This document shows, one piece after another, positions 7,179 through 14,124 of a stretch of DNA of 44,379 bases; the first letter of the stretch is position 1, and each line of letters opens with the position of its first letter. Origin of the DNA: Acidimicrobiia bacterium (lineage in GTDB: Bacteria; Actinomycetota; Acidimicrobiia; Spongiisociales; Spongiisociaceae); contig JAGWAN010000020.1 of assembly GCA_021296345.1 (NCBI GenBank), forward strand, positions 1 to 44,379, written 5' to 3'. The notes under the pieces were generated by a model. It made no database searches and was not told the origin of the DNA. It saw only the letters and a program-made list of their open reading frames with translations. The position numbers were made by a program, and so were the translations under genes.

Positions 7179-7315
7179 GCTGGCGCTCCCCTGACAGGCA
7201 CCGTCTTGGCCGGCCCCGGCTTCGATAGGCGGGATTATCGCGCGTCCGGGATGCCTACCGCCCCGCCGGATGCGATTCCTTGCGCCTCAGGTGGCGGCTA
7301 GGGTTAGCGGACGCA

Positions 7316-7396
7316 CGGGAGCCCGGGAAGGGCTGAGAGGGAGACCGCCCGGTCTCCGACCGTAGAACCTGACCCGGATAATGCCGGCGCAGGAAG
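7316..7396 (+). promoter_or_regulatory. TPP riboswitch (THI element)
   Basis: The conserved thi-box elements are in order: GGGAGCCCG with CTGAGA (7333-7338), a variable P3 arm rich in C and G, then ACCTGA (7367-7372), GATAATGCC (7377-7385) and a closing GCGCAGGAAG arm. This is the thiamine-pyrophosphate aptamer. It ends 47 nt before the thiB start. Between them CCTTCC (7406-7411) can pair with GGAAGG (7431-7436), which overlaps the thiB ribosome binding site, so control of translation initiation is plausible. The aptamer is clear; the mechanism is inferred. Confidence 0.95.
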
Positions 7397-7443
7397 CTGT
7401 CTCCGCCTTCCCTCCCCGATACCGGCCGGCGGAAGGAGCGCTC

Positions 7444-8493
7444 ATGAGAAGGTTGGGGACCGCCCTCGTCGCCTTGATGGTGATGACGGCAGGATGCGGT
7501 GACGACACACCGGAGGACTCAGGGCCGCAGACGATCCGGCTGGTCACCCACGACTCCTTTTACCTCAGCGAGGGGACGCTGGCGGCATTCGAGGCGGAGA
7601 CCGGCCATACCGTCGAGCACCTGGCGGCAGGCGATGCCGGCGCGATGGTCAACCAGGCGGTCCTGACCAGGGACAACCCGATAGGCGACGTGATGTTCGG
7701 AATCGACAACACCTTCCTGGGCCGCGCCCTCGCCGAGGACCTGTTCGTGGAGTACGAGTCGCCCGGGCTCGCCGACGTTCCCGACTCTTTGAAGCTGGAT
7801 CCACGGGTGACTCCGATCGACTTCGGCGACGTGTGTCTCAACTACGACATCGCCGGACTGGCCGGAATCGGGGTGAGCCCGCCCGCCACCCTGGCTGATC
7901 TCACCAAGCCCGAGTACGCCGGGTTGCTGGTAGTCGAGCATCCCGGCACCTCCTCACCCGGGCTGGCGTTCCTGCTCGCGACCATCGCCATCTTCGGCGA
8001 GGACGGCGATTACCCGTGGCAGAGCTTCTGGGCGGATCTGGTCGCCAACGACGTGCTGGTAACCGCCGGATGGGAGGATGCCTACTACGGGTCCTTCTCG
8101 GGAGGATCCGGGGGAGGTGACCGGCCAATCGTGGTGTCCTACGCCTCATCGCCGCCGGCGGAAGTGATCTACGCCGATCCTCCGGTGACCGAGGCGCCAA
8201 CCGCGGTCGTTCTCGACGGGTGCTTCCGCCAGATCGAGTTCGCCGGCATCCTGGCCGGTACGCCGGTCCCCAACGCCGCCCGCGAGTTGGTCGACTTCAT
8301 GCTGAGCCGGGAGTTCCAGGAGGACATCCCGCTCAACATGTTCGTCTTCCCGGCCCACCGCGAGGCCACCCTTCCGGATGAGTTCGTCCGCTACACCGAG
8401 ATCCCGTCCGCTCCCGCGCTCTTGCCGGCGGACGAGATCGACGCCAACCGTTCGATGTGGATCGAGGAATGGATCGAAGTCGTAGCCTCGTAG
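7444..8493 (+). CDS. thiB: Thiamine ABC transporter substrate-binding lipoprotein
   Basis: Periplasm-side receptor of a thiamine/TPP uptake system. The 349-residue precursor has a short lipoprotein signal peptide ending TAGC (Cys18 as lipidation site). The mature part begins IRLVTHDSFYLSEG, typical of ThiB, and includes ASSPPAEVIYADP, a region often involved in ligand binding in this family. The ATG at 7444 follows AAGGAG with a 7-nt gap; the frame opens earlier at 7381, but that ATG lies inside the TPP riboswitch and is not a start. It is the first gene of the operon, and its 3' end overlaps thiP by 37 nt if thiP starts at 8457. Regulation is by the upstream TPP aptamer. Confidence 0.95.
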   Translation: MRRLGTALVALMVMTAGCGDDTPEDSGPQTIRLVTHDSFYLSEGTLAAFEAETGHTVEHLAAGDAGAMVNQAVLTRDNPIGDVMFGIDNTFLGRALAEDLFVEYESPGLADVPDSLKLDPRVTPIDFGDVCLNYDIAGLAGIGVSPPATLADLTKPEYAGLLVVEHPGTSSPGLAFLLATIAIFGEDGDYPWQSFWADLVANDVLVTAGWEDAYYGSFSGGSGGGDRPIVVSYASSPPAEVIYADPPVTEAPTAVVLDGCFRQIEFAGILAGTPVPNAARELVDFMLSREFQEDIPLNMFVFPAHREATLPDEFVRYTEIPSAPALLPADEIDANRSMWIEEWIEVVAS

Positions 8494-10103
8494 GCGCGGG
8501 ATCGGCGCGATGGCTGCTCGCTATACCGGCGGTCTTCTTCGGGCTGTTCTTCGCCTACCCGCTGGTCCGGGTGGTACTGCGGAGCCTGACCCTCGATGGT
8601 GGTCTCGACCTTTCCCCGTTCGTGGAGATCGCCACGAAAGGATCGCTCCGCCGGGCCGCCTGGTTTACCGTATGGCAGGCGACGATCTCGACCCTGGCCA
8701 CCCTGCTGTTCGCCCTTCCGGGCGCCTACGTGGTGGCTCGCTACCGGTTCGCCGCCAGGAGGCTGGTGAGGGCCGCGGTGACGGTGCCGTTCGTCCTGCC
8801 GACAGTGGTGGTGGGCACCGCCTTCCTCGTCCTCCTAGGTCCGAGCGGGCCCCTCGGGGTCGACCTTCGCCAGACGGTCTGGGCGATCCTGGCAGCCCAC
8901 GTCTTCTTCAACTACGCCGTGGTGGTCCGGGTGGTGGGGAGCTTCTGGGAGCTGATCGATCCCAAACTCGAGGAGGCGGCCCGGATGCTGGGCGCCACCA
9001 AGGCGCGGACCTTCGCCACGGTCACGCTACCCCTACTGCTCCCGTCGATCGCCGCCGCTGCCTCGATCGTCTTCTTGTTCACGTTCACCTCGTTCGGAGT
9101 GGTGTTGATCCTGGGCGGTTTCGGATATGCCACCATCGAGGTGGCGGTTTGGCGGGAGGCCACCATCAACCTCGACCTGGCCGCCTCCGCGGCGCTGGCG
9201 GTCGTCCAGCTGGTGGGGATCGCCGCCGTCCTGTCGGTCTACTCGCGCCTCCAGCAACGGCATGCGCGCCGGCTACCGCTCCGGCCGGCCGGCGGAGTCG
9301 CGAGGCGACCCTCCACCCCCGGTGAACGGCTGGTCGTCGCAGGCGCCCTGGCGTCTATGGTCCTCTACCTGGGCGCGCCGATCGTCACCCTCGTTGCCCG
9401 GTCCCTCAGCACCTCCTCCGGACTGGGACTAAGTCACTACACAGGCCTGTTCCAGAGCGGCGCCGGGCCGGTGGCGCCGACGGAGGCCATTCTCAACTCG
9501 GTCTGGTTCGCGGCTGCGGCCATGGTCCCTTCCCTGGTAGTCGGGCTGGCGGCGGCGGTGGTGATCTCGCGGCGCTCCGGCCGCGCCGGCGCCCGGCTGG
9601 ACACGCTGCTCATGCTGCCGCTGGGTACGTCGGCGGTGACCGTCGGCTTCGGCTTTCTCGTCGCGTTCGGGTGGCCCGTAGACCTGCGCACCTCTGCATG
9701 GCTGATCCCGCTGGCCCATTCGGTGGTGGCGGTGCCGTTCGTCATCCGCACCGTCACGCCGGTGCTCCGCTCGGTCCAACCCCGCCTTCTGGAGGCGGCC
9801 TCGATCCTGGGGGCATCCCCCCGCCGGGTGTTCCAGGAGATCGAGCTGCCCATCATCCGCCGGGCCGCCCTGGTCGGGGCCGGATTCGCGGCAGCCGTGT
9901 CGCTGGGCGAGTTCGGCGCCACCGCCTTCCTCATCCGGCCCGATCGGCCCACCATCCCGACCGCCATATTCCGGCTCCTCGGACAGCCGGGCGCCGCCAC
10001 CCTCGGCCAGGCTATGGCCCTGAGCGTCATCCTGATGATCCTCACCACGCTGATCATCATGACGGTCGAGCGGCAGCGGATGGAAGGGGCCGGAGACTTC
10101 TGA
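8457..10103 (+). CDS. thiP: Thiamine ABC transporter permease
   Basis: Inner-membrane permease of the thiamine transporter. At 548 residues it holds two tandem permease domains, as in ThiP, so a single chain forms the whole channel. Each half carries a cytoplasmic EAA loop: [21 protein letters not shown] in the first and [20 protein letters not shown] in the second. About twelve membrane segments are expected. The GTG at 8457 overlaps thiB by 37 nt; an ATG at 8469 is an equally good start, and neither has a clear ribosome binding site, which suggests coupling to thiB. The stop overlaps the ATPase start by one base (TGATG). Confidence 0.94.
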
Positions 10104-11905
10104 TGCTTGAAGTGGTGAATGTAGACGTGTCATACGGTGACCATCGGGCGCTCGCCAACGTGAGCCTGCAGGTCGGCGCCGGCGAGGTGTTGGCTGTACT
10201 GGGACCCTCCGGATCGGGCAAGTCCACCCTGCTACGAGCCATCGCCGGTTTGGAGACCCCCCGAGCCGGCCGGGTGCTGCTGGCCGGGCACGACATCACC
10301 AGCATGGACGTGCACCGGCGCAACGTGGGGTTGATGTTCCAGGATTACGCGCTGTTCCCACACCTCAACGTCTCCGAGAACGTGGCCTTCGGGCTACGGA
10401 TGCAGGGCAGGGACCGGACCGCGATCCGCCGCCGCACCGACGAGGTGCTGTCGTGGGTCGGCCTCGAAGGGTTCGCTGATCGCCGGATCGAATCCCTGTC
10501 GGGTGGGGAGCAGCAACGGGTGGCTCTCGCCCGCGCCCTGGCCCCGGAGCCCGGTCTGCTAATGCTCGACGAGCCGGTCGGCGCGCTCGATCGGGCGTTG
10601 CGGGCCCGGTTGGTGCCCGAGCTGTCGGAGCTGATCCGCCGGGTCGGTGTGACCGCCCTGTACGTCACCCACGATCAGGACGAGGCCTTCGCCATCGCCG
10701 ACCGGGTAGCGGTCCTGCACGAGGGAAGGATCAGGCAGGTCAGCACCCCTGAGGAGCTGTGGAGCCGCCCTGCCACGGAGTTCGTGGCCCGATTCCTCGG
10801 GTTCGAGAACTTCGCCGATGCGCTGGTCGAAGGAGGCGGCGCCGCCACCCCTTGGGGCGCTATACAAACCAGGCTTCCGGATGGTCGCCACCGGGTGGTC
10901 ATCCGGCCCGACGGCGCCGCCCTGAGTCCGGCAGGGAGCCTGGTCGGCACCGTCGAGGCCACCACATTCGTTGCCGGGGAGACCCGCGTGGTGCTGGACT
11001 GCCGCGGCCATCCCCTGGTTGTCCGGACCGCCGGAACGGGCCCGCGAGCGGGGGACGAAGTGTTGGTGGATATCGACCCCGGCTCGGTGGTGCCCTTGTC
11101 ATCCTCACCGGCGCCGCCGGATGATACGCAGCCGGTTCCCGGACCGCGGCCGCCGGCGAGCGACCCTGTGAGGGTGCGCGGGTTACCACCATCCCCCAAC
11201 GGGGCTTCCTCGTTCCATGTCTGGTGGGATGTTCCCGACGTTCCCCTGGCATCGGTGTCGGTGATCCTGGAAGTGCTGAAGCCGCCGGAGGTCAGCCGTC
11301 TGGCCTTCTTCGCTATCCAGGCATCCTTCTGGTCGCCCGCTCGACACGAGGGAGGCGCCCACACCGGGATCCAGTGGAATCCCCGCCATCCCCGGAATCT
11401 GGCCGTCAACTGGGGCGGCTACGACCAGCGTGGCGCCATCCTGCCGGGAACGGAGTCGTCCTTGCCGTCGACTCCCCACGATCCGAACACCAGGGACTTC
11501 TCCTGGACACCAGGTGCCCGCTACCGCCTCACCATCGGACCGCGTACCCCTGGCGTCCGGCACCCAAGCCGGTGGCCGGCCAGGATCGAGGGTCTCGACA
11601 CCGGCGAGGACGTGGTGGTGCGCCACCTCCTGTGCGACGGCGATCAGCTTCGATCACCACTCGTGTGGTCCGAGCTCTTCACCCGGTGCGACGACCCTCC
11701 CATCGAAGTACGGTGGAGCGAGCCGTCCGCGCTCGGCCTCGATGGCGAGCCCGTTCCGGTGGACCGCGGTCGCGTGACCTACCAGGCCTACGATGCCGGC
11801 GGGTGCACGAATACGACGGTTGAATCGGACCAGCTCGGCATCGTGCAGCGATCCGGCTGCGAGCGCAGGACCGCCCACGACTCCTTGGTCGGCTGGAGGA
11901 CATGA
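10103..11905 (+). CDS. thiQ: Thiamine ABC transporter ATPase (ThiQ-like) fused to a C-terminal domain of unknown function
   Basis: A 600-residue protein in two parts. Residues 1 to about 335 are a complete ABC ATPase with a TOBE-like tail: Walker A GPSGSGKS (34-41), signature LSGGEQQ (132-138), Walker B LLMLDEP (152-158) and H-loop His190. This would energise the ThiBP transporter. A proline-rich linker (about 342-370) leads to a domain of about 230 residues starting [10 protein letters not shown], rich in Trp and aromatic beta-strand-like segments, with [32 protein letters not shown] and GGCTNTTV. I do not recognise this domain with certainty; it slightly recalls DUF3472-like sandwich domains. 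ThiQ alone is usually 210-350 residues. No stop separates the parts; an internal GTG at 11167 could allow separate translation. The start follows thiP as TGATG, and the end overlaps thiD as ATGA. Confidence 0.85.
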
Positions 11906-12699
11906 CAGCTACCCCCAGAACGGTGATGACGATAGGCGGCAGCGACTCCGGGGCCGGCGCCGGGATCCAGGCCGACCTCAAGACGCTGTCGGCGCACCGC
12001 GTGTTCGCCACGACGGTGATCACAACGGTCACCGCCCAGAACACACGGGGGGTGGCCCGGGCCGAGCAAGTGCCCTTCGAGATGATCTCCTCCCAACTCG
12101 AAGCGGTCGCTGCCGACCTGCCGCCCGACGCCACCAAGACCGGTTTGCTGGGCCGAGCCGAGGTGGTCCGGCTGGTAGCGGAACAGGCCGCCCGGCTACC
12201 CAACCTGGTGATCGATCCGGTGCTCGTGGATCGGAATGGCAGGTCGCTGGTGGATCGCTCCACCGTGGCCTCCTACTTGGAGTCCCTGATCCCGGTAGCG
12301 GACCTAGCCACGCCGAACCATCGGGAGGCGGCGCTGCTGGCAGGCCGACCCGTCGAGAACGAACGCGATCAGCGGGCCGCGGCGGAGTTCCTCGCCCGCA
12401 CCACCCGGACGCCCTTTCTGGTAACCGGCGGCCGGATGGCCCGTAGCAAGCCACTGATAGACGTGTTCTCGGACGGGATCCGGACCCATGCCCTCCAAGG
12501 ACGCCGGGTGCGATCGCGGAACGTCCACGGAACCGGGGATGCCCTCTCGGCCTCCATAGCTGCCCGCCTGGCCACCGGCGCCGACCTGATCGTGGCCATC
12601 GCCGACGCCCGAGCCTGGGTGTCACGCGCCATCACCGGCGCCGCCGGATGGCACCTGGGCCGCGGCGAGGGCCCGATCGACCACTTCGGCTGGACGTAG
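11902..12699 (+). CDS. thiD: Hydroxymethylpyrimidine/phosphomethylpyrimidine kinase
   Basis: Ribokinase-fold kinase that phosphorylates HMP and HMP-P in the pyrimidine branch of thiamine synthesis. The 265-residue protein starts with [17 protein letters not shown], diagnostic for ThiD, and shows [20 protein letters not shown] and [10 protein letters not shown]. The anion-hole motif near the C-terminus is GTGD (210-213), whereas classical ThiD has GTGC with a catalytic cysteine; Asp is the usual residue in other ribokinase-family enzymes. The ATG overlaps the TGA of the ThiQ fusion. Placement after a TPP riboswitch and thiBPQ suggests that imported precursors are salvaged. An HMP kinase of PdxK type is a less likely reading. 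Confidence 0.92.
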
Positions 12700-12730: not shown

Positions 12731-12881
12731 TCTGGCTCTTCCCATGTGGTCGAGGTGAGTAGCGGCCTATCCGCCCGGCCGCTGTTCTGGTGGATTGGTG
12801 CGCGTGGGCATTCGATTGATCCTTCTACGGAATACATCTGGTATCTCTAAAAGTCGTTCATAACTTGTCACAAGGCATTGA

Positions 12882-12887
12882 TATACT
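12882..12887 (+). promoter_or_regulatory. -10 hexamer for leaderless HNH gene
   Basis: TATACT lies exactly 7 nt before the ATG at 12895, in the most AT-rich stretch of the region (about 12830-12900). No ribosome binding site is present, so transcription probably begins at or beside the start codon. Confidence 0.55.
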
Positions 12888-12902
12888 CGTACATATGTAC
12901 GA
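12887..12902. promoter_or_regulatory. 16-bp perfect palindrome over the HNH start codon
   Basis: TCGTACATATGTACGA is its own reverse complement and contains the ATG at 12895-12897. It begins on the last base of the -10 hexamer, so a protein bound here would block both initiation of transcription and the start codon. It could be an operator, or a cleavage site of the encoded endonuclease; both are inferences. Confidence 0.5.
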
Positions 12903-14124
12903 AGTAGCCTTCCACGACGCGGATTCGGTCCTGGTGGCCGAGAACAACCTCAAGGACGCCCAACGTGAGATCGACCGGCTGCGGGGCCGCCAACTCGCCT
13001 GGTTGAAGATGGTGATCCGTCACCGCGGGACGGTCCGGGACGGATACCGATCATTGGTCGACTGGACGGCTTCCAGACTGGACATACCCCATACGGTCGC
13101 CCGCGATCTCGCCTACCTGGCCAGACGCCTGGACGACGACACCATCGACCTGATGCAAAGGGGCATTCTCCCGTTCGACCGGACCGTCTCCGAGCGGCGC
13201 CTCCTACAGGCCGGAGCGAGTTCCGCAGACGTTGCCGCATCAGCTGATCTCGATTTGGCGGCGGTCACGAAGCTGGCCACCCGGTTCCGCAAGCTCAGCA
13301 GGGGCGACGAACGCAGCGAATTCGAACGCCAATACGTAAACCTCAGAGCATCCGATGACGGCGCCGTATGGCACCTGTCAGGCCGCCTCACCGCCACCGA
13401 CGGCCAGATCGTACACAAAGCACTGGACCAGCGCGCCGCCCAGATTCCACCCCTAACCCCATCCGATCCGGATGCCGAGTTGTCACCAGGGCAGAAACAG
13501 CCCATCGGATTCACCACCAGGGCCCACGACGACTTGGACCACAACCTCACACCCGGAGACCCGGCCGGACGCGAACCCGTCGTCATGCTCATACAAAACG
13601 AAACACTTGCCGGCCAGTCTGGTAACACCCGTGGTGTGGAAGTGTTGGGAGGGCCCAGAGCAGGACCCCAGGCTGCTGACGAAGTCGAGTGCGAAGGACG
13701 CGTAGAACCCGTCACCATCACCGACGGCCAAGTAGTGGACATCGGACAGACCCGGCGTCAGATACCCAGACGGCTACGAAGGGCCGTGCTTGCCAGAGAC
13801 CGAAAATGTGTCATCGACTCCTGCCGTAGCAGCTATCGCCTCCAAACCCACCATGTGATTCCAAGGCACAAGGGAGGCGACAACACCACCACCAACCTCG
13901 CCACCCTCTGCTGGTACCACCATCACATCGCCGTCCACCGGCGGGGACACCGGATCGACCCCGACACGCCACCACACCGCCGCCGTCTACTCCCACCCCG
14001 AACCTGGAACCAGTACCGGCATCCCACCAACGTCGCATACCTCAGCCCGCTCCAGCAGCAGGAACGGGCCTACCAGACCTTCCTCAACCGGTACCACCCC
14101 CAACAACCCCACCCCGGCGGATAG
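12895..14124 (+). CDS. HNH endonuclease domain protein (DUF222/13E12 type)
   Basis: A 409-residue protein of the actinobacterial 13E12/DUF222-like group, often present in several copies per genome. The N-terminal two thirds are helical and charged. The C-terminal HNH nuclease is at about residues 300-352: CVIDSCRSSYRLQTHHVIP, RHKGGDNTTTNLATLCWYHH and HIAVHRRGHRI, with the His-His, Asn and His residues plus zinc-type cysteines present. The tail after it is rich in His, Pro and Gln. The ATG at 12895 is preferred over a TTG at 12865 because a TATACT hexamer lies 7 nt before it. The gene is flanked by a 20-bp direct repeat, and more AT-rich sequence precedes it. Cellular role is unknown; a mobile or phage-derived nuclease is plausible. 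Confidence 0.85.
   Translation: MYEVAFHDADSVLVAENNLKDAQREIDRLRGRQLAWLKMVIRHRGTVRDGYRSLVDWTASRLDIPHTVARDLAYLARRLDDDTIDLMQRGILPFDRTVSERRLLQAGASSADVAASADLDLAAVTKLATRFRKLSRGDERSEFERQYVNLRASDDGAVWHLSGRLTATDGQIVHKALDQRAAQIPPLTPSDPDAELSPGQKQPIGFTTRAHDDLDHNLTPGDPAGREPVVMLIQNETLAGQSGNTRGVEVLGGPRAGPQAADEVECEGRVEPVTITDGQVVDIGQTRRQIPRRLRRAVLARDRKCVIDSCRSSYRLQTHHVIPRHKGGDNTTTNLATLCWYHHHIAVHRRGHRIDPDTPPHRRRLLPPRTWNQYRHPTNVAYLSPLQQQERAYQTFLNRYHPQQPHPGG

What the first reader, a model, noticed from the sequence alone, without database searches (positions are those of the whole stretch)
10103..11905. ThiQ-type ATPase fused in frame to an unknown 230-residue domain inside a TPP-controlled operon
The sequence shows one uninterrupted frame from a complete ABC ATPase through a Pro-rich linker to a Trp-rich domain (about residues 371-600) that has no role in known thiamine ATPases. 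The ends of the frame overlap thiP and thiD exactly, so the fusion is embedded in the operon. The extra domain might bind thiamine precursors, interact with the transporter, or be a former separate gene.
Basis: partly seen in the sequence, partly recalled or inferred. Interest (0 to 1): 0.75.

Follow-up and report, generated by a model that had tools for sequence, protein, structure and literature searches.

The report
Thiamine-importer ATPase fused to orphan domain
A bacterial vitamin-B1 importer ATPase has become joined to a neighbouring, normally separate protein of unknown function; the fusion is real and shared by several related species, but relatives that lost one half or the other suggest the two parts work independently.

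Summary
Confirmed. Window 10103-11905 is one 600-codon frame: ABC importer ATPase with TOBE domain, Pro-rich linker, and a C-terminal domain (CTD) from about residue 359. It is no artefact: 7 of the 15 family-f1 genomes (window included) carry the same uninterrupted 598-600-codon gene. The CTD is normally a separate ~250-aa protein (53 of 99 genomes, own included), a divergent relative of DUF3472, with a predicted beta-sandwich closest to HC7 mucinase and glutamic peptidases. In G012 ThiQ has its own stop and the CTD is a separate gene before thiD, so neighbours were probably joined. Each half is found without the other: five genomes have CTD-thiD but no thiBPQ (one with a clear thiQ scar); one has thiBPQ-thiD without CTD. 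thiB is in 48 of 53 CTD-bearing and 43 of 46 CTD-less genomes, so no tie to thiamine uptake shows. The window's transporter cassette and CTD seem to have different histories, changing at or near the linker. Most likely the CTD is an independent cytoplasmic domain brought under thiamine control by a lineage-specific fusion; a role in thiamine transport is not supported but not excluded.

The parts
7305..7413 (+). TPP riboswitch upstream of the operon
   Evidence: Rfam RF00059, 57.5 bits, gathering 54.3
7381..8493 (+). thiB-like substrate-binding protein gene (start more likely the ATG at 7444, read by eye)
   Evidence: TIGR01254 240 bits, cut-off 93.4
8457..10103 (+). thiP-like double permease
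   Evidence: BPD_transp_1 above cut-off; below the ThiP equivalog cut-offs
10103..11092 (+). ABC ATPase plus TOBE domain, residues 1-330 of the fused protein (Walker [10 protein letters not shown], signature LSGGEQQ, Walker B LLMLDEP, H190 intact by reading the translation)
   Evidence: PF00005 4.8e-39, PF08402 24.1 bits over cut-off 21
11093..11176 (+). Pro-rich linker, residues 331-358; the divergence pattern changes at or near its end
   Evidence: divergence by region and in sliding windows
11177..11902 (+). C-terminal domain, residues 359-600: DUF3472-related beta-sandwich, stand-alone protein elsewhere
   Evidence: 53 of 99 genomes, own included; hhalign to DUF3472 97%; model pLDDT 84, pTM 0.87
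11902..12699 (+). thiD (HMP/HMP-P kinase), overlaps the fused frame by 4 bases
   Evidence: TIGR00097 259.8 bits, cut-off 204.95

Best explanation
The gene most likely encodes a two-domain polypeptide made by a lineage-specific fusion of neighbouring genes. Shown: the arrangement thiB-thiP-thiQ-stop / CTD gene / thiD exists in G012, where thiQ and CTD are in different reading frames; in genus g1 and in G011 (g3) the frames are joined. Shown: the CTD is a conserved family, found without the ATPase elsewhere and related to DUF3472. Inferred: the ATPase half powers ThiBP import of thiamine or HMP, while the CTD folds on its own in the cytoplasm as a beta-sandwich on a flexible linker and keeps its own, non-thiamine activity. 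The fusion then only couples it to the TPP-riboswitched transcript and to the membrane. The locus is also a place where the transporter cassette comes and goes: thiBPQ is missing in five relatives, the CTD alone is missing in one, and the window's cassette appears to have a different ancestry from its CTD and flanks.
For: Seven of 15 f1 genomes fused without a stop. G012: ThiQ of 334 aa with its own TGA, then a separate CTD frame. CTD before thiD without thiBPQ at that locus in G002, G005, G007, G010, G013, and no thiP or thiB match at E 1e-20 anywhere in those five assemblies (84-96% complete). Clear thiQ scar in G002: 44 residues, 73% identical, E 3e-13. G009 keeps a 345-aa ThiQ directly before thiD and has no CTD match. 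CTD under purifying selection fused (dN 0.052-0.149, dS 0.24-0.85 against the six other fused genomes) and unfused (G005-G007: 0.023/0.168). No excess of thiB among CTD-bearing genomes. Homology to DUF3472: A1 profile hits G123 at 3.8e-9 where PF11958 also scores 52 bits, over its cut-off; hhalign 97%, E 2e-11. Different histories: synonymous difference window-G003 is 0.46-0.54 in thiB, thiP and thiQ core, but 0.25 in CTD, 0.26 in thiD, 0.22-0.32 in three flanking genes.
Against: CTD adjoins thiBPQ in two families with different orientation: f1, and f5 genus g24 where it is divergent from thiB in G045 and G056. That could mean a functional tie. The fused frame is kept in seven species rather than re-split, so it may be selected. 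The activity of the CTD is unknown. The full-length model was too poor to show whether the CTD packs on the ATPase (pLDDT 44). The different-history claim is not clean: columns 181-300 of the ATPase part show third-position mismatch of only 0.28-0.35 window-G003, thiB is also fairly diverged between G003 and G004 (0.42), and the thiP tree places the window otherwise than the thiB+thiQ tree.
Confidence: 0.66

Rival explanations
1. The CTD is a regulatory or accessory domain of the thiamine/HMP importer, like C-terminal regulatory domains of other importer ATPases: it senses a ligand or a partner and gates the transporter.
For: In-frame fusion after a TOBE domain kept in seven genomes; CTD next to thiBPQ also in family f5, in another orientation; no ThiC match in any of the 15 f1 genomes, so uptake should matter.
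Against: G009 and 42 other CTD-less genomes have thiB; five genomes keep the CTD without thiBPQ; 49 of 64 CTD loci examined show no thiB or thiD nearby.
Confidence: 0.17
2. The frame is open, but the CTD is made mainly as a separate protein from an internal GTG/TTG start in the linker, so the 'fusion' is largely translational coupling.
For: GTG codons lie in the linker just before the domain, and the unfused G005 and G007 frames open with a GTG there.
Against: The start codon is not conserved among the fused genes (GTT in G004 and GTC in G011 at the place of the window's GTG). No ribosome-binding-site test was made. No stop separates the parts in any of the seven fused genes.
Confidence: 0.12
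3. The CTD is an active glutamic-type peptidase or glycopeptide hydrolase tethered to the importer (compatible with the best explanation; it says what the independent activity is).
For: Foldseek: HC7 2e-8, 4qhw 6e-8, scytalido-glutamic peptidase 1.2e-6, neprosin 8.6e-6. Q406, Q424 and E524 (A2 positions Q48, Q66, E166) are invariant among eight CTDs and two DUF3472 proteins; strand order suggests, by hand only, a match to the Gln/Glu dyad of glutamic peptidases.
Against: No meaningful sequence-profile match to eqolisins: E 0.17 on 34 columns, or E 0.013 on 13 columns with the DUF3472 rows added, probabilities 0.35 and 3.4%. No residue-level structure alignment could be made. The known enzymes are secreted (recalled); the CTD shows no signal peptide by eye.
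Confidence: 0.15
4. Assembly or sequencing error joined two genes.
For: None found.
Against: Seven assemblies of different species in two genera have the same joined frame.
Confidence: 0.01

Closest known systems
DUF3472 (Pfam PF11958)
   Same: Homologous by profile (hhalign 97%, E 2e-11) with shared Q, Q, W-x-E and C positions; bridge sequence G123 found by both profiles
   Different: No Pfam match for the window domain even at E 10; identity to the two DUF3472 proteins is only 23% and 20%. In the one paper seen (passages of PMC7864903) DUF3472 proteins are centipede venom and venom-gland proteins of bacterial origin, often with DUF5077
HC7 mucinase and glutamic peptidases (eqolisin G1, neprosin)
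   Same: Predicted fold
   Different: 10-13% identity, TMq 0.45-0.70, no profile match to eqolisins; activity untested
ThiBPQ thiamine importer
   Same: thiB above the TIGR01254 cut-off, operon with TPP riboswitch and thiD
   Different: ATPase carries a TOBE domain and an extra 242-residue domain; it scores below the ThiQ cut-offs

Membership tests
ABC importer ATPase | ABC_tran domain with Walker A, signature, Walker B | tested here: met
   PF00005 4.8e-39; motifs read in the translation
ThiQ (NCBIfam TIGR01277, NF008039) | score above the curated cut-off | tested here: not met
   170 vs 245 bits; 168 vs 298 bits
Thiamine ABC importer operon | thiamine-type substrate-binding protein in the operon | tested here: met
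   TIGR01254 240 vs 93.4 bits
Thiamine ABC importer operon | transports thiamine, TPP or HMP | not testable with these tools
   needs an uptake assay
DUF3472 (PF11958) | score above Pfam gathering cut-off | tested here: not met
   no match for the window domain; 3 of 14 members match weakly, best E 0.0069
DUF3472 (PF11958) | profile-level homology | tested here: met
   hhalign 97.3%, E 2e-11, against a profile of only two DUF3472 proteins; shared hit G123
Glutamic peptidase (G1) / HC7-like | fold | tested here: met
   Foldseek E 2e-8 to 1.7e-5, prob 1.00, for the first 18 rows
Glutamic peptidase (G1) | sequence-profile similarity | tested here: not met
   hhalign E 0.17, probability 0.35% on 34 columns; with two DUF3472 rows added E 0.013, probability 3.4% on 13 columns
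Glutamic peptidase (G1) / HC7-like | catalytic Gln/Glu or Glu/Glu pair in place | tested here: inconclusive
   invariant Q406, Q424, E524 among ten sequences, but no structural superposition available

The most novel reading that the evidence does not exclude
The CTD is a cytoplasmic Gln/Glu-dyad hydrolase of the glutamic-peptidase fold, carried on an importer ATPase, and DUF3472 as a whole is an unrecognised branch of that enzyme class.
Probability: 0.12. Interest if true: 0.65.

Novelty: new variant of a known kind. Interest (0 to 1): 0.36.

Why it matters
It gives a natural series (separate, fused, transporter absent, extra domain absent) that helps tell a functional fusion from a neighbourhood accident, a caution for 'fusion implies function' reasoning. 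It also places an uncharacterised actinobacterial protein family next to DUF3472 and the glutamic-peptidase/HC7 fold, a testable lead for a domain of unknown function.

Tried and rejected
Artefact: rejected by seven fused assemblies. Thiamine-linked function of the CTD: not supported by co-occurrence. Membrane-anchoring amphipathic helix at the N-terminus of stand-alone CTDs: weak, 5 of 28 tested sequences with P < 0.05, median P 0.27 (window-clade g1-g3 loci, duplicates and sequences without a usable start were left out); not claimed. PDB sequence searches with the domain, A1 and A2: nothing significant. Plasmid and phage records: no match to the domain. PF11958 in 296 genomes of the phylum: no match at E 1e-8, and no control rang, so this says little. 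Viral fold library: TMq at most 0.42 among the 50 rows listed. Eqolisin profile: no meaningful match. Full-length model: unusable, pLDDT 44. In one search the thiP values that involve G011 are invalid (pN 0.69, alignment out of frame); they were dropped and G011 was left out of the thiP tree. The thiP tree placed the window with G009 (FastTree 0.935; IQ-TREE 76), not as the thiB+thiQ tree did, so the donor lineage is not resolved. The thiQ remnant in G013 is weak (E 0.03), in G010 only 16 residues (E 9e-5), and none was seen in G005 and G007. A paper search for ThiQ fusions gave 512 papers with two of three terms; the 10 listed were all off-topic, so no claim is made that the architecture is unpublished.

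Full report
What is there. Window 10103-11905 (+) is one frame of 600 codons. Residues 17-159 match ABC_tran (4.8e-39) and 265-330 match TOBE_2 above its cut-off. The gene sits in the order thiB (7381-8493, TIGR01254 240 bits, cut-off 93.4), thiP-like (8457-10103), fused ATPase-CTD, thiD (11902-12699), behind a TPP riboswitch at 7305-7413. The ATPase is called ThiQ by context only: it scores below both NCBIfam ThiQ cut-offs and better, though also below cut-off, with PhnT2, PotA and similar models. Residues 371-600 had no Pfam or NCBIfam match up to E 1 and no PDB match by sequence up to E 1.

The fusion is real and shared. In the f1 family 15 genomes were compared, the window's included. Seven have the joined frame of 598-600 codons: the window genome, G001, G003, G004, G006, G008 (genus g1) and G011 (g3). 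One, G012 (g4), has ThiQ of 334 aa ending in TGA, a gap, and the CTD in a different reading frame before thiD. Five (G002, G005, G007, G010, G013) have CTD directly before thiD with no thiBPQ there, and no thiP or thiB match at E 1e-20 in the assembly. G014 (g4) has CTD-thiD with a 43-residue piece of the thiQ end upstream (70% to G012, E 9e-14), its thiB-thiP being on another contig; this assembly is fragmented (640 contigs). G009 (g1) has ThiQ of 345 aa directly before thiD and no CTD match. G002 carries a 44-residue remnant of the thiQ tail and linker, 73% identical to the window's (E 3e-13); remnants in G010 (16 residues, E 9e-5) and G013 (E 0.03) are weaker, and none was seen in G005 and G007. 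The simplest order is separate genes, fusion before the split of g1, g2 and g3, then repeated loss of the cassette and one loss of the CTD. This order is inferred.

The CTD elsewhere. 53 of 99 genomes (relatives plus own) have it; 35 of 198 genomes drawn from the class have it at E 0.001. I examined 64 fetched CTD loci besides the window (the hits in G052, G060 and G123 were not among them). Genes of this operon were recognised at 13 f1 loci and 2 f5 loci (G045, G056, where the CTD is divergent from thiB). At the other 49 there was no thiB or thiD, and at five of them only distant (25-49%) ABC ATPase or permease matches. thiB itself is in 91 of 99 genomes: 48 of 53 with a CTD, 43 of 46 without. 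CTD and thiB lie on one contig within 10 kb in 10 of the 48 genomes with both (window, G001, G003, G004, G006, G008, G011, G012, G045, G056); in the single-contig genome G034 they are about 1.7 Mb apart. Most assemblies are fragmented, so 10 is a lower bound. By distribution the CTD is not a thiamine-specific protein. Among 12 f1/f5 loci searched for RNAs, the six with thiBPQ have a TPP riboswitch over the gathering score and the six without have none; the two remaining fused loci were not searched. The CTD therefore seems to be under thiamine control only where the cassette is present.

What the CTD is. Three of 14 family members match DUF3472 weakly (best E 0.0069). The family profile A1 hits a protein in G123 at 3.8e-9, and PF11958 hits the same place with 52 bits, above its cut-off. 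hhalign of 43 CTD sequences (34 kept by its filter) against two DUF3472 proteins gives 97.3%, E 2e-11. Positions invariant in eight CTDs and the two DUF3472 proteins include fused residues Q406, Q424, E524 and C529 (11177 = residue 359). AlphaFold2 gives a confident all-beta model (pLDDT 84.2, pTM 0.87). Foldseek's best solved matches are HC7 (8pn3, 2.0e-8, TMq 0.66), 4qhw (6.2e-8, TMq 0.70), scytalido-glutamic peptidase (2ifr, 1.2e-6) and neprosin (7zvc, 8.6e-6). A mucinase named HC7, taken to be the same, is described as a di-glutamate Bacillus cereus enzyme in PMC13003899 (passages). Glutamic peptidases use a Gln/Glu dyad (PMC3009609, passages) and neprosin a Glu pair with an assisting Gln (PMC9343461, passages). 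That Q424 and E524 take those places is my reading of strand order only. Profile comparison to seven eqolisins is negative, and no residue-level superposition could be run. DUF3472 proteins occur in centipede venoms after transfer from bacteria (PMC7864903, passages). Searches for DUF3472 and its accessions listed 4 and 2 papers; only PMC7864903 was opened, and no listed title is about the domain's function.

A seam at or near the linker. Between the window and G003 the proportion of synonymous differences is 0.49, 0.46 and 0.54 in thiB, thiP and the thiQ core, but 0.25 in the CTD, 0.26 in thiD and 0.32, 0.22, 0.29 in fdhD, a dehydrogenase gene and purB. The cassette values are like those to another genus (window-G011: thiB 0.51, thiQ core 0.49; there CTD and thiD are also 0.50-0.51). 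As a control, G003-G004 gives thiB 0.42, thiP 0.30, thiQ core 0.33, CTD 0.24, thiD 0.25. Along the fused gene, third-position mismatch window-G003 is 0.28-0.76 in 40-codon windows that start at or before column 341 and 0.10-0.28 from column 361 on; the control G003-G004 is 0.10-0.35 throughout. The upstream part is uneven: in windows within columns 181-300 the value is only 0.28-0.35. The thiB+thiQ tree puts the window outside a group of G011 plus the other fused g1 genomes (IQ-TREE 79, FastTree 0.99), while the CTD and flank trees put it inside g1; the thiP tree, without G011, groups it with G009. The cassette was therefore probably exchanged, in the window or in its congeners, with a boundary at or near the linker. 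That the G002 remnant is closer to the window type suggests two cassette alleles in the genus.

How it probably works. All parts but the linker show low dN/dS against the other fused genes, and the CTD does so in fused and unfused genomes alike. No ThiC match was found in any of the 15 f1 genomes, while 13 of 14 control genomes have it, so HMP or thiamine uptake should matter. The ATPase is then an ordinary importer motor. The CTD is best read as a separate cytoplasmic domain with its own unknown, possibly hydrolytic or glycan/peptide-binding, activity. Its fusion ties expression and place, not mechanism. The strongest counter-sign is that the CTD also neighbours thiBPQ in family f5.

Score. 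A specialist would find the architecture unusual but not startling; the separate-fused-lost series and the DUF3472 link are the value. Interest 0.36.

Noticed in passing
window 7381-7443: The longest thiB frame starts inside the TPP riboswitch (7305-7413); the ATG at 7444, followed by a lipoprotein-like signal (MRRLGTALVALMVMTAGCG), is the likelier start (read by eye).
   Followed up: no
window 12865-14124: A 419-aa frame that looks like an HNH/13E12-type endonuclease (recalled, not searched) lies between thiD and a dehydrogenase gene and has no relative among the compared loci.
   Followed up: no
G000-G014: No ThiC match in any of 15 genomes of the family although thiD and TPP riboswitches are present: likely HMP auxotrophs. 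Five of them also lack thiBPQ, so their thiamine source is open.
   Followed up: partly
L116 2399-3424: A Serratia fonticola plasmid DUF3472 protein has a C-terminal part similar to parts of the StcE mucinase (phmmer 1.5e-9), which together with the HC7-like fold hints at glycoprotein substrates for DUF3472.
   Followed up: no
L044-L050, L052, L054: A gene of unknown function (family F4, about 563 aa) sits between fdhD and thiB or the CTD in seven g1 and two g2 genomes but was not found there in the window or in G004 (L051).
   Followed up: no
L082 and L012: Stand-alone CTD genes lie beside polyamine-type (potABCD-like) ABC importer genes in two genomes (type read by eye from the translations).
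   Followed up: no
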